DNA of 64,000 nt from Promethearchaeia archaeon (GTDB lineage Archaea > Asgardarchaeota > Lokiarchaeia > Sigyniarchaeales > SOKP01): positions 124,001 through 188,000 of the forward strand of contig JAHQWG010000016.1 in assembly GCA_029856045.1 (NCBI GenBank), read 5' to 3'. The first letter of the stretch is position 1. Each line of letters opens with the position of its first letter. The position numbers and the translations under genes are program-made. Positions 33,817 to 63,093 of this stretch are shown here, piece by piece. Below the pieces are notes generated by a model. It was not told the DNA's origin. It ran no database searches and saw nothing but the letters and a program-made list of their open reading frames with translations.

Positions 33817-33912
33817 TGCTTCTGGGGGGATTTGAACCCCCGTCAGGAGGGTGAGAACCTCCGATGCGTTACCCTAAATTTTATTAGTTTGACCGAGCTA
33901 CACTACAGAAGC
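33817..33912 (-). tRNA. tRNA-Glu (CTC) with D-arm intron
   Basis: Acceptor stem GCTTCTG pairs with CAGAAGC, discriminator A, no encoded CCA. The anticodon arm is GGAGG, loop TTCTCAC, CCTCC, giving anticodon CTC. The T-arm GGGGGTTCAAATCCCCC is perfect. The D-arm reads GTGTAGCTCGGTCAAA, then a 21-base insertion (about 33867-33887), then CATCGG; removing it restores the D-stem GTGT/ACAT. The insert therefore is an intron in the 3' half of the D-arm; exact ends are ambiguous by a base. Confidence 0.9.
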
Positions 33913-34002
33913 ATAAATGACCTTATCAATAGAATTTTTTCGAAATTAAATATATAAAAAATTTGGTATTGGATTTGAGATTATAATATTCTTATCCTTT
34001 AT

Positions 34003-34407
34003 TTAAAAAGAATTTTTTCTTAGTTTCTCTATTAAATTTAGAAAATTTAATAATGTAAACGAATAAGATTCTAAATTTTTTATTTGATCCTCATCTTCCA
34101 ATTTACTTAATAGCCATTTAAATTTATTAATTAAAATATTCTCTAATTTTTTAGTAACTTCAGTATAATTACTTAATGTTGGCTCTTTTGTATATTTTAA
34201 ATTTTCTACACTGATGTCATTATACTTCTTAATTATTTCTTCTCCTTCTTTAACAATTCTTACTTTCTTATTACAAATTGGGCAGAAAACATCTTCACTC
34301 TTGAATTTAAATAAAGGAGAATTACAAACAGGACAAGCCTTATTTAACATTGTTGAGCCTTTTCTTAAAAGTTCTGCCATTTTTTTAAAATCTTTTTCTT
34401 TAAGCAT
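34003..34407 (-). CDS. UPF0148/SSSCA1-family zinc-ribbon protein
   Basis: The 134-residue protein begins with a helix ending in MAELLRKGSTMLNKACPVCNSPLFKFK, followed by DVFCPICNKKV; the family (autoantigen p27/Zinc-ribbon type) is recognisable by this MAELL-KG-TML--CPVC pattern. The rest (residues 60-134) is helical. The function is not known in archaea. It lies 27 bases downstream of S17e on the same strand, so the pair is probably one operon. Start ATG at 34407; Met10 in the helix is a less likely alternative. Confidence 0.8.
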   Translation of the reverse strand: MLKEKDFKKMAELLRKGSTMLNKACPVCNSPLFKFKSEDVFCPICNKKVRIVKEGEEIIKKYNDISVENLKYTKEPTLSNYTEVTKKLENILINKFKWLLSKLEDEDQIKNLESYSFTLLNFLNLIEKLRKNSF

Positions 34408-34433
34408 TTTCTTTACAATTATACTCTCTTTTT

Positions 34434-34637
34434 CTAATTAGATTCCTTTTTTTCTTTTATATTAAGCAGATTTACAACATATCCGGCTATTCTATTTCTT
34501 AAGTGTTTTGAATCTATCTCCGCATACTTATTCAATAAATCTTTATTTTTATTAAAGTCGGTAGTAAAAATATTCGGATATTTCTCAATTAATTCTTTTG
34601 AAATATTTTTTATTAAAATAGTTCTAATTTTTCCCAT
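34434..34637 (-). CDS. rps17e: Small-subunit ribosomal protein eS17
   Basis: A 67-residue protein. MGKIRTILIKNISKELIEKYP, FTTDFNKNKDLLNKYAEI and KHLRNRIAGYVVNLL match the family's universal pattern (MGKVRT at the start and LRNRIAGY near the end). The length is normal for archaeal eS17. It is the first gene of a two-gene unit with the SSSCA1-like gene, next to the probable RNase P RNA upstream. Confidence 0.95.
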   Translation of the reverse strand: MGKIRTILIKNISKELIEKYPNIFTTDFNKNKDLLNKYAEIDSKHLRNRIAGYVVNLLNIKEKKESN

Positions 34638-34759
34638 TTTTTCTTAAATTCCTCTAATTTCAATAATAATATGAATATTTTATTATAAATCTTAAATTTT
34701 TTGTTTTTAAAATAACATCAATTATTTATTTTAAAATTATATTCTTCTATAAAAAATGT

Positions 34760-35101
34760 TGATGACAAATGAAGAGCATACCCACCCTTTAGTTTTATTT
34801 TTTGTCACCAAAAAAAAATTCGGATATTAAACTAATTCGGCATACCTAAAGTTCAAATCCAAAATTTCATCACTTTTATTTTGCCTTTCTCCAAGATTTT
34901 ATATCGTTTCAACATATCCCTAATAATAAATTTTCCTTGAATTTCTAAACAATCTCAAATCATTAAAATCAAATTATAGGGCTGTTCCGTTTCTATAATT
35001 TATAGATGATTTCTCATCATTTAATTAATCTTGTTTGGATATGAGGGGTGAAGTTCCTCATTGTAGATACAACGTTAATCCGAGCTCTTCATTTGTCATC
35101 A
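34760..35101 (-). ncRNA. rnpB: Probable RNase P RNA
   Basis: A perfect 17-base inverted repeat, GATGACAAATGAAGAGC at 34761 and its complement at 35084-35100, closes a 340-base gene-free region, like stem P1. On the minus strand GAGGAACTTCACCCC follows a small hairpin (TTGTATCTACAA), resembling conserved region I of RNase P RNA (GAGGAAAGTCC plus C run). Near the 3' end AAGGGTGGGTATGC can pair its GGGTG with CACCC of that element, as expected for stem P4. TGAAACG in the middle resembles the J11/12 region. A TATA box stands 27 bases before the 5' end. Assignment is by eye; a covariance search is needed. Confidence 0.6.
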
Positions 35102-35123
35102 TTTAATTAAAGAAAATCATTAT

Positions 35124-35132
35124 TATTAAATA
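35124..35132 (-). promoter_or_regulatory. TATA box of the probable RNase P RNA
   Basis: TATTTAATA on the minus strand, centred about 27 bases before the predicted RNA 5' end, with an AT-rich run on both sides. It is correctly placed for an archaeal TATA box. Confidence 0.45.
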
Positions 35133-35216
35133 TTTTTCATAGCTAGATTCAAAAAATAAGTATTTTTTATCCAAAGAAATTTAAATCAAAGGAATTTAAA
35201 GGTTAGCAATTAATAA

Positions 35217-35546
35217 TTAAATCAAGCTCTTTATTTCAGAAAAAGTCTCATCTCTTAATCTCTCGACATCTTGTAACTGAATTTCATCTGCTTGTTTAGC
35301 AGGAACTTTTAAATTTACAACTGAATTGATAGCTTTTATTTCTTCTGAAGAAATAGTGAATTCTACACCTAATCCCTTTACAATTATTGAAATTTTAATT
35401 GGAAAAAATTGAATTTTGATACTTCTTACGATTCCTACTTTTCTAGCATAGGAATCAATTACTTCAAGACCAATTAATTTTCCTGGTGCAGGAAGTTCAT
35501 ACAATTCTGTTTCGATTGTAGTATTAAGTATTTTATCCAATTTCAT
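35217..35546 (-). CDS. PRC-barrel-like protein
   Basis: The 109-residue protein has the short beta-barrel pattern of archaeal PRC-barrel proteins: GKLIGLEVIDSYARKVGIVRSIKIQ, strands KISIIVKGLGVEFTI and SEEIKAINSVVNLKV, followed by a C-terminal helix. Archaeal single-domain PRC proteins are linked to cell division or RNA metabolism; the role here cannot be told. It is monocistronic next to the probable RNase P RNA, on the same strand. Start ATG at 35546. Confidence 0.65.
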   Translation of the reverse strand: MKLDKILNTTIETELYELPAPGKLIGLEVIDSYARKVGIVRSIKIQFFPIKISIIVKGLGVEFTISSEEIKAINSVVNLKVPAKQADEIQLQDVERLRDETFSEIKSLI

Positions 35547-35962
35547 TATGAATCAATTTCAATTATCAAAAAGAAATAATAATATATCATGTGTATATTA
35601 CAATCACAATGATATAAATTTCTAAAAAAGCTCGAAAATTAGATATAATAATATTATCCTCTAAGGAAATAGAAATCAAATTACGATAAATCAATTTCAA
35701 CATTTAAAAATCTTCTTTAAATAAAAAAGTATAATAATTATTCATTTAAGAAAAATCCACTAAATAAATTCTTCTCCATTAAAAATTTGTTCAATTTAAT
35801 TCGACAAAATCCTGTAAATAATATAAATATAGAATCTTATCTTTCTATTTTTTTGATTAATGCTAAATTATTATTTTTCTGATTTATGTTTTATGAATTT
35901 TTATTTTTATTTAATAATAAATTAAAACTCTGTTTATTATTATTAATCTCATTTTTTTTTAA
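35547..35962. other. AT-rich gap before the Orc1/Cdc6 gene
   Basis: About 415 bases with no gene. Its place beside an Orc1/Cdc6 gene makes it a candidate replication origin, as origins often flank such genes in archaea, but I see no origin recognition boxes with the usual G-rich end. A potential TATA-like AAATAAATATA lies at 35961-35971, directly before the open frame. The upstream T-run (35951-35960) could end any leftward transcript. Confidence 0.3.
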
Positions 35963-37195
35963 ATAAATATACTAAAAGAGTGGGAAAAGATAATTCATAA
36001 TTATATTGAGGATCAACTAAAAAAATCTACTTTATTCATAGATGAAAGCAAATTAGATATAAATTTTATTCCCGAAGATTTACCTCACAGAGATAAAGAA
36101 TTAATTCTTCTCTCGCAATTATTTCTCATATTAATAACACAACCAAATTCAGTTTCGAGAAAAGTTTTAATAACAGGTGGAATTGGTGTCGGGAAGACGG
36201 TTACAATAAAACGATTTGGCCAAATAATTACGAACACAGCAGAAAAAAGAAATATTCCAATTGAATATTTCCATATTAATTGTAGAAAAGAAAGAACAGG
36301 ATATAAAATATTAGTAAAAATTATGAAACATTTTAATAAAAACTTTCCTTCTAGAGGTTTTTCATCTCAAGATTTACTCGATTTGTTGAAGGATAATTTA
36401 AATCGACAAAATAAGCATTTAATTTTGGTTTTAGATGAATTAAGTTATATAATTATGAAAAATGATGACATAATCTATGCATTAACAAGAATTAATGAGG
36501 AGATGTTAAATGCTTCTCAAAGACTATCACTTATCGGAATTATTAAAGATATTTCAACTTTAAACAATTTAGATGAAAGTACATTAAGCACACTTCAAAG
36601 TAACATTATTCATTTTAATAAATATAGTAAAAGTCAAATAATTGATATCCTAAAGTCTAGAGCAAAAATAGCAATAAAACATAATGTAATTGATGATAAT
36701 ATCATTGATATGATCTCTAATTTAGTATATAAAAGGGGAGATATGAGAAAAGCGCTAGATTTATTATGGACAGCTATAAAGATTGCAGAGGAAAGAAATT
36801 TAAAAAAAGTTTCACCAGAATTTGTTCGGTTAGCAAATAATAAAACAATATCAAATTTTTCACAAGATCTTCTAATCTCTATTGAATCTCATAAATTACT
36901 CCTTCTTTTTTCAATCTTAAATCTCTTAGAAAAAAATAAACAATCTTATGTACTTATTTCAAAAATAAAAGAAGAATTTGATCAAATATGCGAATATTTA
37001 AAACTATCAATTATCTCCTATTCACAAATAATGAATTATCTTCATGAACTGGAAAAATATGGGATTATATCGATAAAAATTAAAAGTAAAAATATTAGAG
37101 GAAGACATGCCCAAGTAAGTATAAATGAATTTTCTCTCGAAATATTAAAAAATAAATTACTATCAATTTTTGAAAGTCGAGGGTTAAATATATGA
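35963..37195 (+). CDS. orc1: Orc1/Cdc6 replication initiator, start codon not canonical
   Basis: The frame is open from after TAA (35960-35962) to 37195, 410 codons, the normal length of archaeal Orc1/Cdc6. Motifs in order: STLFIDESKLDINFIPEDLPHRD (lead-in; split here at the family's usual N-terminus), Walker A GGIGVGKT at 36176-36199, Walker B LILVLDELSY, sensor 1 LIGIIKD, sensor 2 YKRGDMRKALDLL, and a C-terminal winged helix. No ATG, GTG or TTG exists in frame before codon 36323, which lies after Walker A, so either a rare start such as ATA or ATT near 35963-36010 is used or the 5' end is damaged. It overlaps the next gene by four bases (ATGA). Confidence 0.8.
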   Translation: MNILKEWEKIIHNYIEDQLKKSTLFIDESKLDINFIPEDLPHRDKELILLSQLFLILITQPNSVSRKVLITGGIGVGKTVTIKRFGQIITNTAEKRNIPIEYFHINCRKERTGYKILVKIMKHFNKNFPSRGFSSQDLLDLLKDNLNRQNKHLILVLDELSYIIMKNDDIIYALTRINEEMLNASQRLSLIGIIKDISTLNNLDESTLSTLQSNIIHFNKYSKSQIIDILKSRAKIAIKHNVIDDNIIDMISNLVYKRGDMRKALDLLWTAIKIAEERNLKKVSPEFVRLANNKTISNFSQDLLISIESHKLLLLFSILNLLEKNKQSYVLISKIKEEFDQICEYLKLSIISYSQIMNYLHELEKYGIISIKIKSKNIRGRHAQVSINEFSLEILKNKLLSIFESRGLNI

Positions 37196-37482
37196 AAAAT
37201 ATAATTCAAAATAATTATACTATTGAAAATCTTTTCTGTTCAAGGGCGAGAGCCAAAATAATAAAAACTTTAGCTCTAAATAATGAACTAAATATATCCA
37301 AAATAATAAAAAATACAAATTTGAATCATTCTAATGTTGTAAATCATTTAAACTTCTTAAAAAAAATTAATTTTATTCAAGAAAAGAATTTTGGCCGAAT
37401 TAAAATTTATAGATATAAAGAAGAAAATTTGAAAGCCCATTGTGTTAAAAAGTTAATAGAATTGATAGAAAATATTGATTAA
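37192..37482 (+). CDS. ArsR-like winged-helix regulator coupled to Orc1/Cdc6
   Basis: A 96-residue winged helix: the helix SRARAKIIKTLALNNELNISKI, recognition helix LNHSNVVNHLNFLKKINFI and the wing EKNFGRIKIYRY are clear. It overlaps the end of the Orc1 gene by four bases, so it is translated with it; a replication-linked regulator is a reasonable guess. The C-terminal helix probably dimerises. No cysteine pair for metal sensing is present. Confidence 0.75.
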   Translation: MKNIIQNNYTIENLFCSRARAKIIKTLALNNELNISKIIKNTNLNHSNVVNHLNFLKKINFIQEKNFGRIKIYRYKEENLKAHCVKKLIELIENID

Positions 37483-37583
37483 CTTTAAATATAAGAATAT
37501 TACTCGAATATAATAAAATTCCTAAAACTAAATCCCTATAAATTATCTAGGTTAAAATATTTTAATATCAACTAATATTTGAA

Positions 37584-38225
37584 ATGATTTTTTTTATAAT
37601 TCTGTTAATAGTTTCTATTTACTTTTCAATTTTAGATCTTCGAAATCGAAGAATTCCAATAAAAAATTATAAAATTTTATTTCTAATCAGTTTATTTTTT
37701 ATTTTTTTTACATTTAATTCTCTTGATTCTGCCTTAATCCTTCTTTTTTTATTACAGATGATTTTTTTGTTTTTTTTTTGTTTTATTTTTTATGTGTTAA
37801 ATTTTATTGGGGGTGGAGATGCAAAATACATCTTTTTTATTTCAATTTATAATTTTTGTTACTCATTTGAAATAGTTAATTTAATCGATTTCTTTTCTAT
37901 TTTCATTTTAATTTATTTTTCATTACTCATACCAAATTTAGCAAAAAATCAATTTTATTCTCGTTCATTATATGAGCAATTTTTAATATTTTTTAATAGA
38001 AAGTGTTTCTTTATAGATTTTTATCTGAAATTGTGTTTCAAATTTTTTCCTTTAAAATCCATAAACAAAATTGATGATATTAAATATAAAATAAAATCAT
38101 TCTTAATTTTATTTGATTTTAAAACGGGTAATTTTTATTTTATTTCTCAGTATAAAATGCCTGTTATAATTGTGTGTTTTTTAGCGTATCTTTTCTATTT
38201 GACTCTGAATTTTTGTGTATTTTAA
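37584..38225 (+). CDS. Prepilin peptidase (A24 family, TadV/EppA-like)
   Basis: Integral membrane aspartyl protease that trims prepilins. About six membrane helices are predicted. The two catalytic aspartates are seen in SILDLRNRRIPIKNY (about residue 18) and GGGDAKYIF (about residue 76). The protein is 213 residues, with a basic soluble loop in the second half. It would process the Flp-like pilin at 45456-45650 and the pilin-like protein at 42784-43185, although those lie 5-8 kb away and are not in the same transcript. Confidence 0.8.
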   Translation: MIFFIILLIVSIYFSILDLRNRRIPIKNYKILFLISLFFIFFTFNSLDSALILLFLLQMIFLFFFCFIFYVLNFIGGGDAKYIFFISIYNFCYSFEIVNLIDFFSIFILIYFSLLIPNLAKNQFYSRSLYEQFLIFFNRKCFFIDFYLKLCFKFFPLKSINKIDDIKYKIKSFLILFDFKTGNFYFISQYKMPVIIVCFLAYLFYLTLNFCVF

Positions 38226-38249
38226 ATAGATCAATTTATAATATAAAAT

Positions 38250-38558
38250 ATGTTATTGAAAAAAAAAACATTAGAAAAAGCTATAGATTTTATTTCCAAT
38301 ATTAATTTTGATGATTCAGAACAATTGAAGATTTTTAATAAAGTTAAAAAAATTATCTTAAATCTAAGGGATCCTGAAATATCAAAAAAAATAGAAGAAT
38401 TAAATGAATTATCTTCAGACTTACCTTTTATTGAGTTATTTAAACAAATTTTGGAGAAATTAACTATCGAACAATTGAATTCAATTTTTAAGCAGTTTAT
38501 AAATAATGAGGATCTCATTGATTATTTACAAGATATGCTTTTAGAAAAGATAATTTAA
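38250..38558 (+). CDS. Hypothetical helical protein, 102 aa
   Basis: I do not recognise it. A soluble, wholly helical and charged protein (LEKAIDFISNINFDDSEQL, IEELNELSSDLPFIELF) of 102 residues. It starts 24 bases after the prepilin peptidase and may be co-transcribed with it, though codon and composition do not show more. ATG at 38250 is the only sensible start. An accessory to the pilus machine or an unrelated small protein are both possible. Confidence 0.5.
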   Translation: MLLKKKTLEKAIDFISNINFDDSEQLKIFNKVKKIILNLRDPEISKKIEELNELSSDLPFIELFKQILEKLTIEQLNSIFKQFINNEDLIDYLQDMLLEKII

Positions 38559-38646
38559 TCTTTTTAGGCAAAGAACTGTCTATCCAAATTATTGTAAGAT
38601 TTATTTTTTCGTTTTTTTTATAAATCATCTAATTTTTATATACATA

Positions 38647-39396
38647 ATGTCCATCTTAATCGATATTATTCTCGTTATGTGTGCATATCTTTATGTTTTA
38701 ACTGTGATATTAATCCCAAAGTATTTAAAAGAAAAGGGAAAGATTTCAAAATTTGCTGCACGCAAAACAGTTCACTTACTTGCTGGTCTTTCAATATTTG
38801 TAACTCCCTTTTTAGAATTTTATTGGTATTCACTTATAATTTCTGGCTCCATGATGCTCCTTACCTATTTAAGTTCTAAAGAGAGTAAAGTGAAACAATT
38901 AAAGAGTTTATTTGACGCAATTGGTGAGGAAGCTGAAGAGAAAGCTGGATATTTACAAGGACCATTTAATTACTGCCTTTCAATTTTTATTCTTATGTTA
39001 TTTTTTTCAATATTTGCTCCAACAATGTTTTATTTTCCAATTTCAGGAATTTTAATTATGATTATATCAGATACTCTTGCGAGTGTGGTAGGGAAAAAAT
39101 ATGGAAAAATTAAAATTAAAATTAAATGGACTCATACAGAAAGGACGATTATTGGCTCATTAACTCTTTTCTTAACAGCTTTTTTCTTATCATTTTTTTC
39201 TTATCTTTTATTCGGTGTCATTATTCCAACTTCTCAGCAGGTTATTAATATTGCTCAAGTTATCATTTTCTCATTTTTAACAAGCATTGTTGCAACAATT
39301 ACAGAACTATTATCACCAAGTACTTATGATGATTTAACTGTACCGATAATTACTACACTAATTATCTTTCTTCTTTCTTCGATTTTAATTGCTTAA
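38647..39396 (+). CDS. Dolichol/phytol-kinase-like CTP transferase membrane protein
   Basis: A polyprenol kinase-like integral membrane protein related to phosphatidate cytidylyltransferase. About seven helices are predicted. Typical segments are FAARKTVHLLAG (N-terminal conserved Lys-His), IGEEAEEKAGYLQGPFNYC, ISDTLASVVGKKYG (Asp for metal/nucleotide) and WTHTERTIIGSLT. It probably phosphorylates a polyprenol or geranylgeraniol using CTP, for lipid or glycosylation-carrier recycling; the substrate is not decidable. Length (249) and order of motifs fit the dolichol/phytol-kinase group. It is followed after 94 bases by an unrelated small gene on the same strand. Confidence 0.75.
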   Translation: MSILIDIILVMCAYLYVLTVILIPKYLKEKGKISKFAARKTVHLLAGLSIFVTPFLEFYWYSLIISGSMMLLTYLSSKESKVKQLKSLFDAIGEEAEEKAGYLQGPFNYCLSIFILMLFFSIFAPTMFYFPISGILIMIISDTLASVVGKKYGKIKIKIKWTHTERTIIGSLTLFLTAFFLSFFSYLLFGVIIPTSQQVINIAQVIIFSFLTSIVATITELLSPSTYDDLTVPIITTLIIFLLSSILIA

Positions 39397-39490
39397 CATA
39401 ACTTTAAATTATTGACTTGTCATTTTAAAATTAAAAGTGATAATTTAATAAAATTTGAAAAAGATAAATTTGATATAACTAGGGATTTAA

Positions 39491-39910
39491 ATGGAAATTG
39501 AAAAAAAAAGAGAAACAGTATGGAAATTAAAACAAAAAGAAAAACAAAAATATATTGAGTTAATTTCAGTTGAGGAATCTGGAGAAGTTAATCAAATTAA
39601 ATTGTCCTTAAAAAAAATGGAAGATGCAATAACAATTGAAATGAATAAAAGTGAATTTAATAATTTTTTATCAATATTATTAGCGTTTAAAGATGTAGTA
39701 ATTGGTTCAGAGATAAGTGTATTAACTCCAGATTTCAAAGATTTTGATGCAATAAAATCTCAAGAAAAAGAAGAATCTGTTTCTATTTCAGAAAAAAATG
39801 AGGTTATAGAAAAAGTTCCAGTACAAGAACTCACGGATGTTCAAGATAACGTTCCAAATGAAAAACTACATGAAGAGGAATTGAATCCTAAGGAATGGGA
39901 TCCCTGGTAA
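39491..39910 (+). CDS. Hypothetical acidic-tailed protein, 139 aa
   Basis: I do not recognise it. The first 75 residues may form an alpha/beta domain (VWKLKQKEKQKYIELISVEE, LSLKKMEDAITIEMNK, NFLSILLAFKDVV); the rest is disordered and acidic, ending EELNPKEWDPW, a tryptophan-containing acidic tail of the sort that acts as a docking peptide. Its stop is directly next to the 3' end of the SRP RNA, which lies on the other strand. Start ATG at 39491. Confidence 0.5.
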   Translation: MEIEKKRETVWKLKQKEKQKYIELISVEESGEVNQIKLSLKKMEDAITIEMNKSEFNNFLSILLAFKDVVIGSEISVLTPDFKDFDAIKSQEKEESVSISEKNEVIEKVPVQELTDVQDNVPNEKLHEEELNPKEWDPW

Positions 39911-39914
39911 TTAG

Positions 39915-40231
39915 AGTGATCTGATCCTTGAAAATAAAAAAGAAATTTTTATAGCATATTTCCATTCTTACCACCCGTCACCAATAAGCGTAAATTTTTT
40001 GATTTACGACTGCTCCATCCCTGACCTGGTCGGGTTCATCATCAATTGAGTATATTTCTCCTACAAGAAATATCTCAAAAATAACTTACCTAATTGGGCG
40101 AATGGATCATTGAAACATTAAATATGTATAAAAATCATTTTTAATTCCTCAGATCATTTCTCAATCCGTTATAGAGCATTTACGGTCCACCCAGTATAGG
40201 GTTTCAGGAATTGCCCTAGATTCCCACGATC
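39915..40231 (-). ncRNA. ffs: Signal recognition particle RNA (7S)
   Basis: The minus strand at 40041-40008 reads GATGAACCCGACCAGGTC then AGGGATGGAGCAGTC: the SRP helix 8 of the S domain (TGAACC...CCAGGTC, GNRA-type loop GGGA, GGAGCAG), nearly as in human 7SL (from memory). The 5' part contains CTAGGGCAATTCC and TGAAACCCTATACTGGGTGG, consistent with the Alu domain. GATCTGAGGAATTAAAAATG near 40150 can pair with the 3' end, which closes with TTTCAAGGATCAGATC (helix 5). Total length about 317 bases, usual for archaea. 5' and 3' ends are approximate. Confidence 0.85.
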
Positions 40232-40251
40232 AATAATAATATTTTTATTAA

Positions 40252-40262
40252 CAAATATAAAG
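40252..40262 (-). promoter_or_regulatory. TATA box of the SRP RNA
   Basis: CTTTATATTTG on the minus strand lies about 26 bases before the expected 5' end of the SRP RNA, as in archaeal promoters. The spacing supports the 5' end near 40231. Confidence 0.5.
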
Positions 40263-40335
40263 CTTATTATAAATGTAAAAAGGTTTTAAATAATTTATTT
40301 TGAAAAATCCAATGATAATCAATTAGAAAATGTAA

Positions 40336-40839
40336 TTAAGTTCTTTTTTTTTCAATTTTGAAAATACAACATCTCTTTTCCTTATCTGTTATCATACATT
40401 CTATCTCTGAAACAGAAGCACGATACAATGCAAATTCTCCAAAACCAGATAATATTCCAGACATGAAATAACAAATATATTTAAAATTATTCTCCATGTA
40501 TGATGAAATATTATGATATAATTTTAAAATTATAAGTTCCTCCGATATTTCTTGAGGTTCAATATTCCCCCATCCCATATTGCTAAACATTTCACAAAAT
40601 AGATCTGTTAAATCTTTAAGAGTTTTAGGTTTTAAATTTTCTTCCCAAATTTCTATTAAAACCCTACCCATTTTTTTACCTAACCATATTAATAAAGGTT
40701 TTACTCCCTCGCCATATATAGATGATAACAAATCTATAATCTGAGGAGGAAAAAACACAAATCTCTGATTAAATAATCTGTATATTCCATCAGAATATTC
40801 TAATCCCTTTAATTTTAAATCTTTCATCTTTTGATACAC
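40336..40839 (-). CDS. V4R/TRAPP-like domain protein
   Basis: The 167-residue protein matches the V4R (4-vinyl reductase) fold, related to eukaryotic TRAPP subunit Bet3. Visible landmarks are an N-terminal helix pair, the GWGNIEP turn, a run of strands (ELIILKLYHN), CYFMSGILSGFGEFALYRASVSEIECM and the terminal KRCCIFKIE. In Asgard archaea such proteins are considered possible relatives of vesicle tethers. Cysteines near the end could bind a ligand, as the fold does in other proteins. It is on the minus strand, between SRP RNA and the pilus genes. The start at 40839 ATG (MYQKM); Met at residue 5 is possible. Confidence 0.7.
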   Translation of the reverse strand: MYQKMKDLKLKGLEYSDGIYRLFNQRFVFFPPQIIDLLSSIYGEGVKPLLIWLGKKMGRVLIEIWEENLKPKTLKDLTDLFCEMFSNMGWGNIEPQEISEELIILKLYHNISSYMENNFKYICYFMSGILSGFGEFALYRASVSEIECMITDKEKRCCIFKIEKKRT

Positions 40840-40915
40840 ATTGAGATCTTCTAAAATAATTAATATGTTTTTAAAATATTTTCACAAGTTTTTATAATTA
40901 TTTATATGATCTTTT

Positions 40916-41212
40916 TTGATTATGTTAAATTATAATCTGTCAATAATTATTGTTTTATTATCTTTTTTGTTTATTATATTTATTTTTTCAATATTTACGA
41001 CTAATATAGATGCATTGTTCATATTTATTTTCTACATGGTCTTAATAATCTATTTGAATCTAATTATTTTACAAAATTATATAGATTTAAAAAGTTCTAA
41101 TGATCTTCTTAATTTTAATTTTTTAACATTTCTGGCAAATCTTTCTTTTATTTGTGAATTTTTTATTGGAATCTTTATTTTAATTCAAGTAATATACAAA
41201 TTCATCACATAA
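40916..41212 (+). CDS. Small membrane protein, three helices
   Basis: I do not recognise it. A 98-residue, very hydrophobic protein with three membrane helices (about residues 7-29, 33-52, 70-94). Start TTG at 40916 (MIMLNYNLS) or ATG at 40922 (MLNYNLS). Its end overlaps the end of the pilus platform gene by eight bases on the opposite strand. It lies in the pilus neighbourhood, so a helper role is possible but not shown. Confidence 0.5.
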   Translation: MIMLNYNLSIIIVLLSFLFIIFIFSIFTTNIDALFIFIFYMVLIIYLNLIILQNYIDLKSSNDLLNFNFLTFLANLSFICEFFIGIFILIQVIYKFIT

Positions 41213-51921: not shown

Positions 51922-53738
<1,817 letters not shown>

Positions 53739-53865: not shown

Positions 53866-54003
53866 GGGCCTGTAGATCAGTGGAAGATCATTGGGTTCGG
53901 TCTCGTATCCAAACTTAGGCTTGACTTGCACACCAGCTTGATTGATTTTCATTCAAGAGGTCAAGAGTTCAAGAGGTCACGGGTTCAATTCCCGTCAGGT
54001 CCA
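53866..54003 (+). tRNA. tRNA-Ala (TGC) with two introns
   Basis: Acceptor GGGCCTG pairs with CAGGTCC, with the G3-U70 wobble pair that is the alanine identity element, and discriminator A. D-stem GATC/GATC, anticodon stem CTTGA/TCAAG, loop CTTGCAT with anticodon TGC, T-arm ACGGGTTCAATTCCCGT. Two inserts must be removed: about 29 bases (53891-53919) between D-stem and anticodon stem, and about 37 bases (53931-53967) at the canonical position after base 37. The mature form is 72 bases. It sits 128 bases downstream of the 16S gene. Exact splice sites are approximate. Confidence 0.85.
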
Positions 54004-54683: not shown

Positions 54684-55877
54684 TCATTTTGCTGAAAAAA
54701 TTTTTATCACATCATTATCTTTTAAAATATAATTCTCTCCTAATTTCATTTTCGATTTTACCTCCATCCCGTAAATAAAATGTTTTGCTAAGTCAGTGTG
54801 AATTTTTTCTCTAATAAATTCCCGTAATTTTGTTCCTTTTCTAATTAAAAAAACATCAGGGAGTACATTTCCATCTTTATCTGTTAAAGTATTTAAATTT
54901 GCAACAGGATATACAGTAATTTGGTCTAATAAAGAATATACTGCGTAATTTAATGTTTTTTGAACTCCTGTACCTCCAATTCCTCGTAATAATTTTTCTC
55001 TAACCTTTTCTAGAGCTTCCAATTCATTTTTTTTTAGATTCTCTTTTTTTATTATAATAAAATCAGTATCACCAGGCATATATTTGATAATACCTTCCTT
55101 ACTATATTCCCTAAGAATGAATTCTGCTAAGGCACTGCATGGAATAATTTTCTTCTTATATTTTTTCTTTAATTCATCCAGTTTTCTCATACCAATCTCT
55201 TTATCAATTTTATTAGCAATTATTATTATCGGTTTAGAGATTTCTCTTAGGTTTTTTGAAAAAAAATTTAGTTCTGCTTTATCCCATTTTGATATTGGCT
55301 TTCCATCTAAATTGGATTTTTCAATTGATTTCTCTATATCGTCCTTTTTAATTGATAATCCTGATAATCTTTGATATAATGCTTCAATAAGCTCATTCCC
55401 CCCCTTAATAACTCTCATTGAAAATTTTCTCCAATCCTCTCTTTCAATAATTCCTTTAAACCATAAATTTATTTCATCTTCTAAAAACATTATATCTTCG
55501 TAAGGATCATGGGACCCTGACTCTACTGTATTTCCATTTGCATCCAAAGAACCTGTAATATCAATAATATGTAATAGTACATCTGCTCGGCTTAAATCAC
55601 TCAAAAATCTATTCCCAAGCCCCTTCCCCTCATGAGCTCCCGGTACTAAACCAGCTACATCTAATAATTGAATAGGAATAAAACGAATTTGTTCTATACA
55701 TTTTGAATTCTTAGGATTATCCTTAACATTCAATTCTTTACATACGCACGGTTTTTTAACATATGCTATTCCTTTATTGGGATCGATAGTTGTAAAGGGA
55801 TAATCTCCAACTTTAGCATGAGTTAAACAAGCACTATTTAAGAATGTACTTTTACCGGAAGAAGGTTTAGGGTTAAA
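54684..55877 (-). CDS. Obg/OLA1-type GTPase with damaged or noncanonical start
   Basis: The product is the archaeal Obg-family GTPase (YchF/OLA1/Drg group): P-loop PSSGKSTFLNSA, switch region AKVGDYPFTTIDPNKG, G3 DVAGLVPGAHEGKG, G4 NKID, and a C-terminal TGS domain (LNTLTDKDGNVLPDVFLIRKGTKL). The TTG usually taken as start (55733) would remove the P-loop, which is encoded upstream in the same open frame to 55877, where TAA (55878-55880) stops it. No ATG, GTG or TTG precedes the P-loop. A deletion of one T in ATTTAAC would restore IKILINPKPSSGKS, like MKIGLIGKPSSGKS in relatives, starting at ATA. TATA-like TTTATATATAAAG lies just upstream. Confidence 0.75.
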   Translation of the reverse strand, partial: FNPKPSSGKSTFLNSACLTHAKVGDYPFTTIDPNKGIAYVKKPCVCKELNVKDNPKNSKCIEQIRFIPIQLLDVAGLVPGAHEGKGLGNRFLSDLSRADVLLHIIDITGSLDANGNTVESGSHDPYEDIMFLEDEINLWFKGIIEREDWRKFSMRVIKGGNELIEALYQRLSGLSIKKDDIEKSIEKSNLDGKPISKWDKAELNFFSKNLREISKPIIIIANKIDKEIGMRKLDELKKKYKKKIIPCSALAEFILREYSKEGIIKYMPGDTDFIIIKKENLKKNELEALEKVREKLLRGIGGTGVQKTLNYAVYSLLDQITVYPVANLNTLTDKDGNVLPDVFLIRKGTKLREFIREKIHTDLAKHFIYGMEVKSKMKLGENYILKDNDVIKIFSAK

Positions 55878-55880
55878 TTA

Positions 55881-56241
55881 GAATCTTTATATATAAATAA
55901 TCTAAAATAATTTCCCTACCACACCGATTAGCACATATTTTCACTTATAACTTAATTTATTTATATTTAATTTATTGCATTTTAGTTAATTTAAAAAAAT
56001 ATAATTATTAAAGTTCTATTTTTCTTTTTAATAAGATTGCATGATAATAACATTTTAATGAATTTATTAAAATTAATTTTTTCTTAATAATTTAAATTTT
56101 TTTAGTTATCATTATTTATGTTTTAATGACCATTTATTATAATCTATTCAGTTCTTAATAAAATATTGATACCCAAATTTCTTGAAATCGTTTTTTCTTC
56201 GTTTTAAAGAAATATTAGTAAAGAAATTAAAGAATCTTATT
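55881..56241. other. AT-rich gap without a recognised gene
   Basis: About 360 bases between the Obg-type GTPase and the membrane ATPase genes. It holds the likely promoter of the GTPase (TTTATATATAAAG at about 55885-55897, minus strand) and otherwise only A/T runs. I see no ORF or RNA structure. Confidence 0.4.
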
Positions 56242-59001
56242 TTAAGAAACTATTTTTTCTTTAGTTAAAGTATTTTGGTTTTTTGGGTTAATTAAATTTT
56301 CAATTAATTGCTTTAAAAGTTGAAAATCTTGTTCCTTTTTGGAAGAAAATTCAAGATTTTTAAATGATATAAAAAAGGATTTTATTTTTTTGTCTAATTT
56401 AATAAAAATTTTTTTTAGAATTTTATAATTTTCAAGTATTTCCTTTTGATTAACTGATATTTTGGAAAAATAACTCGTTCTGTTTTGAAAATAAAACCCT
56501 TTAAAAATCAGTTTAATTTTTTTAATCTCTTTAATTGAAGCCTTTAATATATTAAAAATTTTTGCATCATCAACTTCTTTTGAAATTTCTGTTTCTTTAA
56601 AGATTAAAGATAATAATAAATTCTCTTTAAATTCTCTACTCCATTTAGATGAGATTTGAAATAATTGATTATAGATATTATATCCTTCTTGAGCAAAAAT
56701 CTTACTTTCAATATTGTTATTAAAAGAAGAAAAGATAATTGACTGAAGTTTATCTGGTAATTTCAAAGTTGAAATTTTCAAGAACAGATTAGGTCCTTTT
56801 GTGCTGTCAAAAATTGACAATAATAATATATAATTTGGAATTTTTTTTTTATCTGTTTCTCCTTTCATCTCAACGTTGATAAGTTCATTTGAATCGATGT
56901 TCTCTATTAATTCTTTAAAATAATATTCATGCGCATTATGAAATTTTTTGCTTTTACTATTAAAGTTTTTTCTTAAATTATTTAATTTTAAAAATACTCT
57001 TTTGGTATATTTTAAAAGGAGATTCGCATCCTCTGCAGAAATTTTTCCTGTAGAATCGGTTATTTCAATAATTTTACTGAGTTTCTTCAATTCTGAATAT
57101 ATAATAAAACTCTTTTGTAATTGATTTTTTTCAATATTCGCTAGAAAATCATTAATATTATAGAATTTGAAATTTAGTCGACATGCTATTTGTTCTAAAA
57201 GCTCCTCAATGATGTTTTTACATTCTAGTCTACAATATTCAAAAGATTTACTCAAATAATATTTTTGAGCACTTTTAATTCGCTCTTTTAAATTTTTAAT
57301 TGTTATTTTCCTTTTCTCATAAAAATTTTTCATATTTTTTTTTTCAGCGTTATTTGAAAACTTATCCTCCGTATCTTTTTTAAACTCAACTAAATTTTTA
57401 TTATTCCTATTAAAGGGTTTCAAAACATCTTTTTTATTATTTCTAAATGACTTTTTAAAATTAATTGATTTGAATTTTAATCTTTGTTTTCTCGAATTTA
57501 ATACTTTTTTCATTGGGTTGATCCTATTTTTCAATAAAATAGAATTACGATTTTCTAGCTTTGATTCTAATTTTCTTTTTTTTTCTGCCATAAAAGGAAT
57601 TTGAAGAACAAATGGGTCTTTAATTGAATTCACTCTTACAATACATTGACCTTCATTCAAATAAGATAAATAATCATAATGATCTTTTGGTAATGACAAT
57701 AATTCTCCTAATATTTCCTTTTCATAATAATTTTTAAAACTTACAACGACACCTGAATTTGCTAAAATCTCTTCACTTATATCAGGTCGAGTTGCAATAC
57801 ATATAAGACATTCACCAGTTCCCCTTTGTAATAAGGCAATATCCTCTAAATATGTACTTAATTTACTTTTTTTAACTATACTTCTTGGTACAAAATATTG
57901 TGCGTCTTCTATAATAGTGATGTGTTTAATCCCTTGATGTTCTCCAGATTCTAAGTTATAATCCCATAAATATTTAAGTATAACATTTAAAAAGAAAAAT
58001 AAATCCTCTTTATCCCCACCAAGACGAATAATCGAACTTAAATCCAAAATACAATCTCTTTGTAAAATTTCTTTTATTGAAATTGATGTATTATTTTCAA
58101 AAACTTTTTTTAAAGGTCCTTCAGAAAACCTTCGAATCCTATTCTTTATACTTATTATCGTTTGTTTTAATTGAGGGATTTGATTTTCATATTTCAGTAA
58201 ATATTCTTCACAAAAGTTATGAAAACTTTGCCAACTTCTTGTATTTTCTTTATAACAAACATTTGTCATGATCTCTACCAAAACTTTTTCCATCTGTGGT
58301 GTGTATTCAACATTAGATTCGAGAAATTGAGAGCTTTTTAAGATCTCAAATATTCTTTCAGCATGAATAGATGGATTTGTAAATTCCGGATTGAAAATAT
58401 TAATTGAAAAATTTTCTCCAGGGGATAAAAGTAAAATATTCTTTAACCTTTTACATAGAAACTTATATTCTCCCTTAAATTCTACTAAAAAAAATGGAAT
58501 ATTTTCTCTTTTTTTAAAATTTATTAAAAAATTTTGTACAAAATTGCTTTTACCTGTTCCCGTAAATCCACAAATAAATATGTGTCTTTCTAAGTCTTTT
58601 TTTGTTAAATAAAAATTAAATTTTTTCCTCCTTTTTCTGACCAACCGACCAATTTTTATTTTACCTTTTTTTGAATCCTTTCTGGCAGGAATCGGTAAAT
58701 CTATAATTTTACTATTAGCTGGATAAAAAGATGACAAAATTAGTAATGTAAATGAAAGAATTATACCAATTAATATAAGAGAAATAAATAAATTTAGCGA
58801 AATTGATTCAGATTTTATATTATTTTGAAATATAAAATAAAGAATTAAAAAAAATATATTGGCTGCATTAAGAATTATTATCGATTTCTTATGGTTGGGC
58901 ATGCTAAATCCTTTTTTTCTTAAAAGGAAAAATAAAAAATTAATGAAAATTAGAAAAAAAAAAAATCCGTAATAAAGTAAATGCCAAAAAATATTAACCA
59001 T
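56242..59001 (-). CDS. Membrane-anchored HerA/VirD4-like ATPase
   Basis: A 919-residue protein. Three to four N-terminal membrane helices (about 6-28, 45-62, 70-92) precede the motor domain: Walker A GFTGTGKSNF (about 145-153), RENIPFFLVEFKGEY, Walker B THIIEDAQ-like ITIIEDAQYF, and ATRPDISEEILANSGVVVSF, the sequence of HerA/VirB4/VirD4-type translocation ATPases. The last 430 residues are lysine-rich and helical, with no known domain to me. It may move DNA or protein across the membrane, or serve a conjugation-like machine. No relaxase or other conjugation gene lies nearby. Start ATG at 59001. Confidence 0.8.
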   Translation of the reverse strand: MVNIFWHLLYYGFFFFLIFINFLFFLLRKKGFSMPNHKKSIIILNAANIFFLILYFIFQNNIKSESISLNLFISLILIGIILSFTLLILSSFYPANSKIIDLPIPARKDSKKGKIKIGRLVRKRRKKFNFYLTKKDLERHIFICGFTGTGKSNFVQNFLINFKKRENIPFFLVEFKGEYKFLCKRLKNILLLSPGENFSINIFNPEFTNPSIHAERIFEILKSSQFLESNVEYTPQMEKVLVEIMTNVCYKENTRSWQSFHNFCEEYLLKYENQIPQLKQTIISIKNRIRRFSEGPLKKVFENNTSISIKEILQRDCILDLSSIIRLGGDKEDLFFFLNVILKYLWDYNLESGEHQGIKHITIIEDAQYFVPRSIVKKSKLSTYLEDIALLQRGTGECLICIATRPDISEEILANSGVVVSFKNYYEKEILGELLSLPKDHYDYLSYLNEGQCIVRVNSIKDPFVLQIPFMAEKKRKLESKLENRNSILLKNRINPMKKVLNSRKQRLKFKSINFKKSFRNNKKDVLKPFNRNNKNLVEFKKDTEDKFSNNAEKKNMKNFYEKRKITIKNLKERIKSAQKYYLSKSFEYCRLECKNIIEELLEQIACRLNFKFYNINDFLANIEKNQLQKSFIIYSELKKLSKIIEITDSTGKISAEDANLLLKYTKRVFLKLNNLRKNFNSKSKKFHNAHEYYFKELIENIDSNELINVEMKGETDKKKIPNYILLLSIFDSTKGPNLFLKISTLKLPDKLQSIIFSSFNNNIESKIFAQEGYNIYNQLFQISSKWSREFKENLLLSLIFKETEISKEVDDAKIFNILKASIKEIKKIKLIFKGFYFQNRTSYFSKISVNQKEILENYKILKKIFIKLDKKIKSFFISFKNLEFSSKKEQDFQLLKQLIENLINPKNQNTLTKEKIVS

Positions 59002-59427
59002 TTCAAGAAAAAATTTGGATATTACATTTAAATACTAAACCATAAATTCTAATATCTTTTAATTTAACCTTGCCTTAGAAAAACTATAATTTTCTATTTT
59101 TATTTCGTCTTTGAACTTTTACAACTGGATTACTAATCATTTAAAATCTTTTTTTTAAAAAGACTTATCTTTTAATTAGTAGAGATGCGTCAGAACTGAT
59201 TCTTCTTTAAGACCAATCCTAAATAGATTAAAGAATGATAAGTTAATGTTAAATCAATCAAAAATTTTGATTAATTACCGCAAAAACATTTTTATAACAT
59301 TGCTTTTATAAAATTTTCTAAATAATCTCACAAACATTTTAAAATCTTTAAAAAAAGGAAATATTTTTATGACATAGAGTTCTATAAATATAAAATATCA
59401 AAATTAATACTTTTAAAGGGAAAAAAA
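59002..59427. other. 426-base promoter region of the thermosome gene
   Basis: Contains no recognised gene. At its right end lie TATA-like TCTATAAATATAAAAT (59381-59396) and the ribosome-binding AAAGGG at 59415-59420. The rest is AT-rich with a few GC islands (GATGCGTCAG near 59184) that I could not assign. Confidence 0.5.
59382..59395 (+). promoter_or_regulatory. TATA box of thermosome gene
   Basis: CTATAAATATAAAA, about 35-45 bases before the ATG at 59428, with a following AAAGGG ribosome-binding site seven bases before the start. Heat-shock regulation is probable for a chaperonin but no specific operator is identified. Confidence 0.5.
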
Positions 59428-61059
59428 ATGGTACAATTCTCAGGAGTTCCAGTAATTGTTTTAAAAGAAGGTACTGAAAGAAAACAGGGAAGAAATGCAC
59501 AGAAGAATAACATAACTGCTTCTATAGCTGTATCTGAAGCAATAAGAACGACATTAGGTCCAAAGGGAATGGATAAAATGTTAGTTGATTCTTTAGGAGA
59601 TGTAACAATCACTAATGATGGGGCTACCATACTCAATGAAATAGATGTTCAGCATCCAGCAGCTAAAATGATGATAGAAATTGCAAAAACTCAAGATTTA
59701 AGAGTCGGAGATGGAACAACAACAAGTGTTATAATAGGAGGATCACTTTTAAAATCAGCACAAGAATTGATTGATCAATCCGTTCATCCAACAATTATTT
59801 TGAGAGGATATAGAAAAGCTCTAATCAAAAGTAAAGATATTTTAAAAGAAATTGCTGAGAAAGTAGATAGTTCCGATAAAAAAATATTAAAACAGGCTGC
59901 AATAACAGCGATGAATAGTAAATCAATAGCGGGGATGAGGGAGCATTTTGCAGAAATTGCTGTGGAATCCATACTCCAAATTACTGATCTTAGAGGAGAT
60001 TTAAAAATAATTGACATAGACCAAATTCAAATAATTAAAAAAGAAGGGGGAAGTCTGTCAGATACTGAATTAATCAATGGATTGATCATTGATAAAGAAA
60101 TAGTACACCCAATGATGCCTAAGATCTTAAAAAATGTAAAAATAGCTCTAATCGATGCTCCTTTAGAAATTGAAAAGACTGAGTTCGATGCTGAAATTAA
60201 AATTCAATCACCAGATCAAATAACTCGTTTTCTTGAGGAAGAAGAAAATATGTTAAAAAGAAAAACTTCTGCAATTATTAATTCAGGAGCAAAGGCAATC
60301 TTTTGTCAAAAAGGAATTGATGATAAAGCTCAGAATCTTTTGGCAAGAGAAAATATAATCGCAATTAGAAGAGTAAAACGTTCAGATATGGAAAAATTAT
60401 CAAGAGCTACAAAAGCTAAGATTATAACCAATCTTGTTGAACTTACTCCCGAAGATCTTGGAACATCTGGATTGGTAGAAGAAAAAAAAGTTGGTACTGA
60501 CAATATGATTTTTGTTTCAGAATGTTCAGATCCAAAAGCTGTAAGCATCTTGATTCGAGGTGGTGTTGAACATGTTGTGGATGAAGCAGAAAGAACATTA
60601 AATGATGCCTTATGCGTTGTAAGAAATATAGTAGATAATCCATATATTTTAGGAGGTGGTGGATCTTCAGAAATAGAATTATCAAAACAATTAAAAGATT
60701 TTGCCACAACTATTGGTGGTCGAGAGCAATTAGCAATAGAAGCATATGCTTATTCTCTAGAGGTTGTTCCAACTACTTTAGCAGAAAATGCAGGATTTGA
60801 TCCAGTTGATTTATTAGTCGAATTAAGGGCGAAACATGATACCCCTGATGGTAAAGCAATAGGTATAAATATTCAAACTGGAAAACCAAGCAATATGATC
60901 CAAGAAGGTGTAATTGAACCTTTAGTGGTTTTAATGCAAGCTATCCAATCTGCGACAGAAGTCTCATCAATGATTTTAAAAATAGATGATGTAATAGCTG
61001 CCTCAGGTGGAATGAAAGCAGGAGCAGGTGGTCCACAAATGCCACCGGATATGGATTAA
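59428..61059 (+). CDS. thsA: Thermosome (group II chaperonin) subunit
   Basis: Subunit of the archaeal CCT-like chaperonin. The 543 residues contain [42 protein letters not shown], the [19 protein letters not shown] region, [28 protein letters not shown] and the flexible C-terminus ending [12 protein letters not shown]. All are typical. It has a TATA box and ribosome-binding site directly upstream. The following gene Tsr3 is 57 bases downstream on the same strand. Confidence 0.97.
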
Positions 61060-61115
61060 ATATATTTTTTTAATTTTTTATTTTTTTATAATAAAAATCT
61101 CAACTTTTTTTACAT

Positions 61116-61571
61116 ATGAACAAAATCAAACTCTTTGCATTACATTTTAATGAATGCGACCCCACAAAATGTACTTCAATAAAATTGAAAAAGTTCAATT
61201 TGATAACAGTCTCAAATAAAATTCTGAATAAAATGAAAAATACTATTCTTTTAGACCCCTTTACAGAAAAATTATTATCAGAAAAAGATACTAATTTGGC
61301 GATTAAATATGGAATTACAGTAATTGATTGCTCCTGGAAAAATATTTTAAATATTGCAAATTTAAAATTTAAAAATAAAAGAAAACTACCCCCGCAAATC
61401 GCAACAAATCCGGTAAATTATGGTAAATGGGAGAAATTGAGTTCTGTTGAAGCATTAGCTGCAGCTTTATACATTATGGGATTTAAACCATTCGCAAAAT
61501 TACTTCTCTCGAAATTTTCTTGGGGAACTGAATTTTTGAAATTAAATTTTGAAGGTATAACTAAAAATTAA
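61116..61571 (+). CDS. tsr3: rRNA aminocarboxypropyltransferase Tsr3
   Basis: Tsr3 transfers the acp group to the hypermodified pseudouridine of the small-subunit rRNA. Family segments: HFNECDPTKCTSIKLKKF, LLDPFTEKLLS, TVIDCSWKN, RKLPPQIATNPVNYGKW, LSSVEALAAALYIMGF, FKPFAKLLLSKFSWGTEFLKLN. The 151 residues cover the whole core, slightly shorter than many homologues at the C-terminus. It is convergent with the roadblock-like gene (two bases between them). It shares function with 16S processing, though the rRNA gene lies 8 kb away. Confidence 0.85.
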   Translation: MNKIKLFALHFNECDPTKCTSIKLKKFNLITVSNKILNKMKNTILLDPFTEKLLSEKDTNLAIKYGITVIDCSWKNILNIANLKFKNKRKLPPQIATNPVNYGKWEKLSSVEALAAALYIMGFKPFAKLLLSKFSWGTEFLKLNFEGITKN

Positions 61572-61573
61572 GT

Positions 61574-62587
61574 TTATTCGAATTTTGAGCCTGTAATGAT
61601 ATTTATAGAATTTATTAATTGTTCTGTGATATCATTAGTTCCTATTATTTCTAATATCGAAAATATTATGTTTCGTGCTTCCCCCATTGCTGGAATTCCA
61701 CCAAATGTTAAAGGAAATAAAGCAACAAAAGAAATATTTTGCATATTTGATTCTTTTGTAATTTCATTAGAAAACTGTAATGTTCCTGAATGACATGCTA
61801 AAATTCCGTAAAAAGATTCAGAATCTTGACCAGAAATACATATATATGATAAAAGGCGTCCCAAAGCAATATTTTGAGCTTCCTCTAACATTTTTTGGAA
61901 ACCAACATTTGCATTTGCTGAGAAAGCTTCCATTGTTAAGGGTAAAGATTGGTCAGATACATCTCTTGCATCTAAAGTTAAACCAGAAAGATTCACCAAA
62001 CAGTATCTAGAAAAAACCGGATTTTTAATTGAATCTAAAATCTTTCCAATTGCTTGTAACTTCTCTAAGTCCTTGTAATTATCACTATTATATGAAGTAA
62101 AAGAGATTTCTGTTCCCATTGAAAATAAATAAATTGCACTGCGCACTTTATTAGAAAATTCTTCTAAATCCTTTTCTGAATTGGGATATCCGCCAAAAAA
62201 ATTCCCAATTTCTCTTTTTAAGTGATAAGTACTACTTGCAAGATTATCAGGATCTAAAGGCCATTCGCCTTTATAATTATGCACTATAGTTAATAGTGTT
62301 TGATTTATTCTAATTGTAATTAAACAAACTTTTTCAAAAAAAGAAAAGGAAATTATCTGGTCTTTAATTCTCAAATCATTCCAATTTTCTTCACTTGCAG
62401 AAAAAGCTATTGAAGCAAGTCCAGTAATTATATTAGTATCTAAATTAAGGTCACTTTTTCTGCCTATGTGTGCGATTGATAATCCATTTTCATCACACAA
62501 TATTACCATTAAAGTCTCTTTTGAAGATCTTAAAATCGCAGTTAAATATTTAATAAATGACTCCCTAATACTCATTAATATAACCAC
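61574..62587 (-). CDS. Roadblock-like protein, 337 aa
   Basis: Two roadblock/longin-like halves are seen: ETLMVILCDENGLSIAHIGRKSD, GLASIAFSASEENW, CLITIRINQTLLTIVHN in the first and STGTEISFTSY-like MGTEISFTSYNSDNY, IKNPVFSRYCLVNLSGLTLDARDV, FYGILACHSGTLQFS in the second. It resembles the regulator of the operon at 50887-51921. Start: ATG at 62587 or the internal MSIRESFIKYL (Met5, 62575); the latter fits a typical roadblock opening better. It is separate from any GTPase gene in the window. Confidence 0.65.
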   Translation of the reverse strand: MVILMSIRESFIKYLTAILRSSKETLMVILCDENGLSIAHIGRKSDLNLDTNIITGLASIAFSASEENWNDLRIKDQIISFSFFEKVCLITIRINQTLLTIVHNYKGEWPLDPDNLASSTYHLKREIGNFFGGYPNSEKDLEEFSNKVRSAIYLFSMGTEISFTSYNSDNYKDLEKLQAIGKILDSIKNPVFSRYCLVNLSGLTLDARDVSDQSLPLTMEAFSANANVGFQKMLEEAQNIALGRLLSYICISGQDSESFYGILACHSGTLQFSNEITKESNMQNISFVALFPLTFGGIPAMGEARNIIFSILEIIGTNDITEQLINSINIITGSKFE

Positions 62588-62721
62588 ACAAACTATTTCT
62601 CTGTTTTTTTAATTCTCGTGGATTATTTTATTAAAATTATATTGATTTTTATAAAATTTAAAGTTATTTTAATTTCAATAATGCTTTTAGATAAATCTTT
62701 GCAATACTTCTTTCCTTAATT

Positions 62722-62823
62722 TGCAGGGAGGGGGATTTGAACCCCCGTACTCCTATGAGAGTGAATCCTAAGTCCACCGCCTTTAATCAATACTATTTTT
62801 TGACCGGGCTTGGCGATCCCTGC
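62722..62823 (-). tRNA. tRNA-Leu (TAG) with D-arm intron
   Basis: Acceptor GCAGGGA pairs with TCCCTGC, discriminator A. Class II: the variable arm (TCTCATAGGAGTAC region) is extended. Anticodon stem GTGGA/TTCAC with loop CTTAGGA gives anticodon TAG. T-arm GGGGGTTCAAATCCCCC. The D-arm GCCAAGCCCGGTCAAA is followed by an extra 17 bases (about 62782-62798) before GGC; removing them restores the D-stem GCC/GGC. Same insertion site as in the two tRNA-Glu genes. Confidence 0.85.
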
Positions 62824-62999
62824 ATTTTTCAAATTATTATTATCCTCCTATGATATTATATAGAAAATAATTTTTTCATTAAAATATTAATATTATAATA
62901 ATTTTTATTCTATTTTTTTTTATTTAAGAAAAAACCTCATGAATAAATTTTAATTTTATTATTAATATTTCTCAATAAATTAATTTAAAAAAAAAATTT

Positions 63000-63093
63000 G
63001 CTCTCGTAGTGTAGCTCGGCCAAACTTTAAAATTGAGGCTAAGCATGCTAGGCTTTCACCCTGGTGACCCGGGTTCGAATCCCGGCGAGAGCA
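63000..63093 (+). tRNA. tRNA-Glu (TTC) with D-arm intron
   Basis: Acceptor GCTCTCG pairs with CGAGAGC, discriminator A. Anticodon stem CTAGG/CCTGG, loop CTTTCAC, anticodon TTC. T-arm CCCGGGTTCGAATCCCGG. In the D-arm, GTGTAGCTCGGCCAAA is followed by 19 extra bases (63025-63043) and then CATGC; removing them restores D-stem GTGT/ACAT. The intron lies at the same place as in tRNA-Glu(CTC) at 33817-33912. Confidence 0.9.

What the first reader, a model, noticed from the sequence alone, without database searches (positions are those of the whole stretch)
33867..63043. Introns in the 3' half of the D-arm in three tRNAs
tRNA-Glu(CTC), tRNA-Leu(TAG) and tRNA-Glu(TTC) each carry a 17-21 base insert directly after the D-loop CAAA, at 33867-33887, 62782-62798 and 63025-63043. 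The position is noncanonical and shared by different tRNAs, and the introns are not sequence-identical. Archaeal splicing of such sites requires a flexible endonuclease. The shared point suggests a lineage-specific habit.
Basis: partly seen in the sequence, partly recalled or inferred. Interest (0 to 1): 0.7.

Follow-up and report, generated by a model that had tools for sequence, protein, structure and literature searches.

The report
D-arm introns in Lokiarchaeal tRNAs
Three transfer-RNA genes of a Lokiarchaeon (an Asgard archaeon) are interrupted at the same spot by short introns that fold into the usual archaeal splice signal; this is a real but already known kind of feature, here shown to recur across the Lokiarchaeia.

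Summary
The inserts are real. tRNA-Glu(CTC), tRNA-Leu(TAG) and tRNA-Glu(TTC) carry 21, 17 and 19 extra bases between D-loop position 21 and the 3' D-stem (site 21/22). With the insert ARAGORN misses two genes and calls the third tRNA-Ser; without it, it calls Glu, Leu and Glu.

They are best read as bulge-helix-bulge (BHB) introns. The conserved D-loop GGYC pairs with the intron's 3' tail (GGCT, GATT; one mismatch in Glu(CTC)). Of 48 distinct archaeal tRNA-Glu D-arms with an insert, 36 keep all four central pairs (shuffled mean 0.55, maximum 4). Exon base 20 (C/T) covaries with its intron partner (G/A), once within the window's own genus. Uninterrupted orthologues exist.

The genome encodes catalytic and structural splicing endonuclease subunits, with a loop like the Crenarchaea-specific loop that confers broad specificity, plus an RtcB ligase.

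Glu introns are spread through the family and occur sporadically in other archaea; the Leu introns were found only in this genus.

D-arm introns in both tRNA-Glu are experimentally proven in Sulfolobus tokodaii, and non-canonical introns are reported in other Asgard classes. New member of a known kind. No RNA evidence from this organism was available.

The parts
33818..33912 (-). tRNA-Glu(CTC) gene, interrupted
   Evidence: acceptor, T-arm and anticodon arm intact; ARAGORN finds nothing unspliced, tRNA-Glu(ctc) when spliced
33868..33888 (-). 21-base intron at 21/22 of tRNA-Glu(CTC); relaxed BHB (GGTC/GGTA, 3 of 4 central pairs; inner helix CTAA/TTAG)
   Evidence: same site in orthologues of all four congeners
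62723..62823 (-). tRNA-Leu(TAG) gene, interrupted
   Evidence: ARAGORN: none unspliced, tRNA-Leu(tag) spliced
62783..62799 (-). 17-base intron at 21/22 of tRNA-Leu(TAG); central helix GGTC/GATT (4 of 4)
   Evidence: same in four congeners, uninterrupted in G032 and G036 of the same family
63000..63092 (+). tRNA-Glu(TTC) gene, interrupted; ARAGORN miscalls it tRNA-Ser(tga)
63024..63042 (+). 19-base intron at 21/22 of tRNA-Glu(TTC); central helix GGCC/GGCT (4 of 4), bulges AA|A and AA|G
   Evidence: compensatory change C20/G to T20/A in congener G016
53866..54002 (+). tRNA-Ala(TGC) gene after the 16S rRNA, apparently with two introns (about 25/26 and 37/38); not D-loop, same splicing system
   Evidence: Rfam RF00005 match; removing 29 and 37 bases gives tRNA-Ala(tgc) in ARAGORN

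Best explanation
The three inserts are archaeal pre-tRNA introns at a non-canonical D-arm position (21/22). In the precursor, D-loop bases G18 G19 Y20 C20a pair with the last bases of the intron, forming the 4-bp central helix of a bulge-helix-bulge motif. A20b and A21 lie in the 5' bulge, where the first cut falls. The splicing endonuclease, predicted to be an alpha-beta heterotetramer with a loop like the Crenarchaea-specific loop, would cut both bulges, and RtcB would join the exons to restore a normal D-arm. Shown by sequence: the inserts, the pairing, the covariation, the uninterrupted orthologues, and the genes for both enzymes. Inferred: the actual cutting, the subunit assembly, and the ligation.
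For: Removing the insert gives the expected tRNA identity in each case. 36 of 48 distinct tRNA-Glu D-arms with inserts have 4 of 4 central pairs (shuffled mean 0.55, max 4) and 38 of 48 have an inner helix of at least 3 bp (mean 2.8, max 9). Exon base 20 pairs Watson-Crick with its own intron in 38 of 48 genes, against 216 of 1080 when introns are swapped between C20 and T20 genes. Within the window's genus G016 shows the compensatory change GGCC/GGCT to GGTC/GACT. Uninterrupted orthologues: Glu in G013, G075, G117, G138, G188, G190, G212; Leu(TAG) in G032, G036. Two tRNA_int_endo genes: alpha closest to Aeropyrum pernix EndA, with Tyr, His and Lys at the catalytic positions and the lysine that aligns with K44; beta lacks the His. 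RtcB present. At least 13 other tRNA genes in the genome also carry inserts.
Against: No RNA data. Glu(CTC) has only 3 of 4 central pairs, and its unspliced form folds into an alternative extended D-stem. ARAGORN recovers the tRNA after any deletion of the right length in the D-arm, so it does not fix the site. In Glu(TTC) a shifted cut (start 21) also has 4 central pairs. The covariation counts are not corrected for shared ancestry.
Confidence: 0.95

Rival explanations
1. The extra bases stay in the mature tRNA as an enlarged D-loop.
For: No RNA evidence excludes it; unspliced Glu(CTC) has a stable predicted D-arm extension.
Against: Insert length and sequence vary freely (11-32 bases) while the BHB pairs covary; uninterrupted orthologues have a standard D-loop; the extension of Glu(CTC) is not kept in congeners; the same genome has inserts at other positions too.
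Confidence: 0.03
2. The interrupted genes are pseudogenes or assembly errors.
For: The genome is a multi-contig assembly (55 contigs).
Against: They are the only Glu(TTC), Glu(CTC) and Leu(TAG) genes found in a genome rated 100% complete; stems are intact; the same interruptions appear in independently assembled congeners.
Confidence: 0.02
3. The shared site reflects recent copying of one intron between Leu and Glu genes, guided by the common D-loop GGYCAA (a refinement of the best explanation, not an alternative to it).
For: Leu introns are found only in this genus while Glu introns are widespread; both exons supply the same GGYCAA; in G016 the Leu intron tail (AAAATTGGCTAG) resembles Glu tails (AAAATTGAGGCTAA) of congeners. 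Large-scale intron transposition has been proposed for Thermoproteales (PMC4090602).
Against: Introns are short and A+T-rich, so similarity is weak evidence; Gln(CTG) has the identical junction GGCCAAGCAT but no intron.
Confidence: 0.2

Closest known systems
D-arm introns of tRNA-Glu(UUC) and tRNA-Glu(CUC) of Sulfolobus tokodaii (PMC4307357)
   Same: Both Glu isoacceptors, D-arm, after a CAA trinucleotide; BHB-like structure; cut in vitro by the organism's EndA
   Different: Sulfolobales (TACK); here Lokiarchaeia, and no experiment
Non-canonical and multiple tRNA introns of Atabeyarchaeia and Freyarchaeia (PMC11291895)
   Same: Asgard archaea, introns at non-canonical positions, several per gene
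   Different: Other Asgard classes; I read no statement there about a shared D-arm site or about Lokiarchaeia
Thermoproteales non-canonical tRNA introns (Sugahara et al. 2008, as reviewed in PMC4090602)
   Same: Positions 20/21, 22/23, 25/26, 53/54 and others; several introns per tRNA
   Different: Site 21/22 is not in the list quoted in that review, though 20/21 is next to it and borders are often ambiguous by a base
(alpha-beta)2 splicing endonuclease of Aeropyrum pernix with Crenarchaea-specific loop (PMC6379350)
   Same: alpha matches at E 1.8e-38, with the loop motif and the lysine that aligns with K44; separate beta without the catalytic His
   Different: Assembly and activity of the Lokiarchaeial enzyme are not tested

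Membership tests
Archaeal BHB tRNA intron | 4-bp central helix between the 5' exon end and the intron 3' end | tested here: met
   4/4 in Glu(TTC), Leu(TAG), Leu(GAG); 3/4 in Glu(CTC), i.e. relaxed
Archaeal BHB tRNA intron | 3-base bulges with cuts inside them, product a normal tRNA | tested here: met
   bulges AA|A and AA|G, AA|A and AA|A, AA|A and AC|G by this assignment; spliced product recognised. For Leu(TAG) the minimum-energy fold pairs part of the bulge
Archaeal BHB tRNA intron | pairing maintained by compensatory change | tested here: met
   within genus in G016
Archaeal BHB tRNA intron | removed from the RNA in the cell | not testable with these tools
   no RNA reads available
(alpha-beta)2-type splicing endonuclease with CSL | separate catalytic alpha and non-catalytic beta genes | tested here: met
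   two genes in most genomes of the class
(alpha-beta)2-type splicing endonuclease with CSL | loop with conserved lysine (K44 in A. pernix) | tested here: met
   motif [FY][FY]G[SA]PLGIxKPR in alpha of this genome and of seven further Lokiarchaeia loci; an eighth (L146) was not readable there; identity as CSL by sequence alignment only
(alpha-beta)2-type splicing endonuclease with CSL | heterotetramer that cuts relaxed BHB substrates | not testable with these tools
   biochemistry needed

The most novel reading that the evidence does not exclude
The D-loop GGYCAA acts as a reusable landing site: introns have moved from tRNA-Glu into tRNA-Leu genes within this Lokiarchaeial genus, so a class-wide intron family with a sequence-defined target is still spreading in Asgard archaea.
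Probability: 0.2. Interest if true: 0.5.

Novelty: new member of a known kind. Interest (0 to 1): 0.27.

Why it matters
It extends experimentally established D-arm tRNA introns to the Lokiarchaeia, with strong covariation support, and links them to an endonuclease whose catalytic subunit carries the 'Crenarchaea-specific' loop. Practically, standard gene finders miss or misname such tRNAs (here Glu is called Ser). The recent Leu insertions, with uninterrupted relatives, give a small system for studying intron gain.

Tried and rejected
Several T-arm pattern hits proved not to be tRNAs. ARAGORN as proof of the exact splice site was rejected after the deletion control. Minimum-energy folds of the precursors support the central helix for Glu(TTC) and Leu(TAG) but give a different helix for Glu(CTC). 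Pseudogene, assembly error and retained-large-D-loop readings were considered and rejected. The paper on Methanopyrus endonuclease (Kaneta et al. 2018) was not held, so whether it already reports the loop in Lokiarchaeota is unknown.

Full report
Setting. The window is part of a 3.34 Mb archaeal genome, G+C about 25%, with an archaeal 16S rRNA at 52242-53736. Matches with identical coordinates and lengths link the congeners G015, G016, G017 and G014 to named MAGs of 'Candidatus Lokiarchaeota/Lokiarchaeia' (2R3_4, WORB4, CSMAG_2237, 6H3_1), so the window is Lokiarchaeial. The link by coordinates is my inference.

Observation. Glu(CTC) 33818-33912 (-), Leu(TAG) 62723-62823 (-) and Glu(TTC) 63000-63092 (+) have intact acceptor, anticodon and T arms, with 21, 17 and 19 extra bases at the 3' end of the D-loop. 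ARAGORN finds only one tRNA in the window and calls it Ser(tga). With the inserts removed it calls Glu(ctc), Leu(tag) and Glu(ttc). A control shows it does so for any deletion of that length in the D-arm, so this test proves the surplus, not the junction.

Junction. In uninterrupted orthologues the sequence reads GGCCAAGCAT (Glu; G013, G075, G188, G190, G212) or GGTCAAAGGC (Leu; G032, G036). Position numbers follow standard tRNA numbering applied by me.

BHB evidence. A collection-wide pattern scan for a tRNA-Glu D-arm with 4-34 extra bases found 50 stretches: 42 named Lokiarchaeota or Lokiarchaeia, and 8 others (Sigynarchaeota 1, Woesearchaeota 2, Methanocellales 2, Hadesarchaea 2, one unnamed archaeon). 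For 48 distinct sequences, G18 G19 Y20 C20a pairs completely with the intron tail in 36 (shuffled introns: mean 0.55, max 4), and both central and inner helices are present in 27 (mean 0.025, max 2). Base 20 and its intron partner are C/G in 26 and T/A in 12; swapping introns between C20 and T20 genes lowers Watson-Crick pairing from 38/48 to 216/1080. Inside the window's genus, G016 has GGTC/GACT where the others have GGCC/GGCT. Sequences are related, so these counts are not independent events. Glu(CTC) of the window's genus has a weakened central helix (3 of 4; 2 of 4 in G014).

Distribution. In 83 genomes of the class, 45 Glu genes fit the pattern: 43 interrupted, 2 not. In the rest of the phylum 6 fitting genes in 5 genomes are all uninterrupted. 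The pattern is strict, so genomes without a match are uninformative. Leu(TAG) is interrupted in all five genomes of the genus, and Leu(GAG) in four of them (the fifth, G016, is 69% complete and showed no Leu(GAG) match); every fitting Leu gene outside the genus is uninterrupted. So Glu introns look older, and Leu introns look like recent gains.

Genome context. About 34 tRNA genes were found; at least 16 besides the three have been examined as interrupted or possibly so, at the anticodon loop and elsewhere, including Leu(GAG) at 21/22, Asp(GTC) probably 20/21, Pro(TGG) 25/26, Thr(CGT) about 32/33, Arg(TCG) in the T-arm, and Ala(TGC) in the window with two introns. Assignments outside the three are from my own scoring and are provisional. 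Gln(CTG) has the junction GGCCAAGCAT without an intron.

Enzymes. Two tRNA_int_endo genes. Alpha (L141, 197 aa) is closest to Aeropyrum pernix EndA (E 1.8e-38) and has the lysine aligned with K44 of the Crenarchaea-specific loop; the same motif is in seven further Lokiarchaeial alpha genes. Beta (L142, 203 aa) lacks the catalytic His. Most genomes of the class have two such genes. RtcB ligase is present. According to PMC6379350, (alpha-beta)2 enzymes with this loop cut relaxed BHB motifs, and archaea with such loops have more tRNA introns.

Known or new. D-arm introns of both tRNA-Glu were shown by in vitro cutting in Sulfolobus tokodaii (PMC4307357). Non-canonical positions 20/21, 22/23, 25/26 and others are listed in PMC4090602. 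Asgard Atabeyarchaeia and Freyarchaeia have introns in 92-95% of tRNA genes, often non-canonical (PMC11291895). I found no paper on a shared D-arm site in Lokiarchaeia, but the library holds only open-licence papers. I therefore class this as a new member of a known kind.

Noticed in passing
window 53866-54002 (+): tRNA-Ala(TGC) after the 16S rRNA seems to hold two introns (29 bases near 25/26 and 37 bases at 37/38); spliced it is called tRNA-Ala(tgc).
   Followed up: partly
L023 (G000:C43:5386-5488): tRNA-Arg(TCG) with a 30-base insert in the 5' strand of the T-stem, with a strong predicted BHB.
   Followed up: partly
L141 and L143-L150: The 'Crenarchaea-specific' loop motif of EndA alpha, lysine included, is present in Lokiarchaeia, so the loop is not restricted to Crenarchaeota.
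   Followed up: partly
L012 (C27:267519-267610): ARAGORN calls this gene tRNA-Asn(att); with a 20-base insert removed it reads as tRNA-Thr(CGT).
   Followed up: partly
L099, L102, L109, L113, L120 and others: Many Lokiarchaeial tRNA-Glu(TTC) genes have a second insert right after GGTGAC in the variable region, besides the D-arm intron.
   Followed up: no
L118 (Sigynarchaeota SQRJ_179): tRNA-Glu(TTC) with only an 11-base D-arm insert (ATGATGGCTAA), possibly a minimal bulge-helix-loop intron.
   Followed up: no
L025 (C1:2268-2355): A tRNA for selenocysteine (anticodon TCA) is present and uninterrupted.
   Followed up: no
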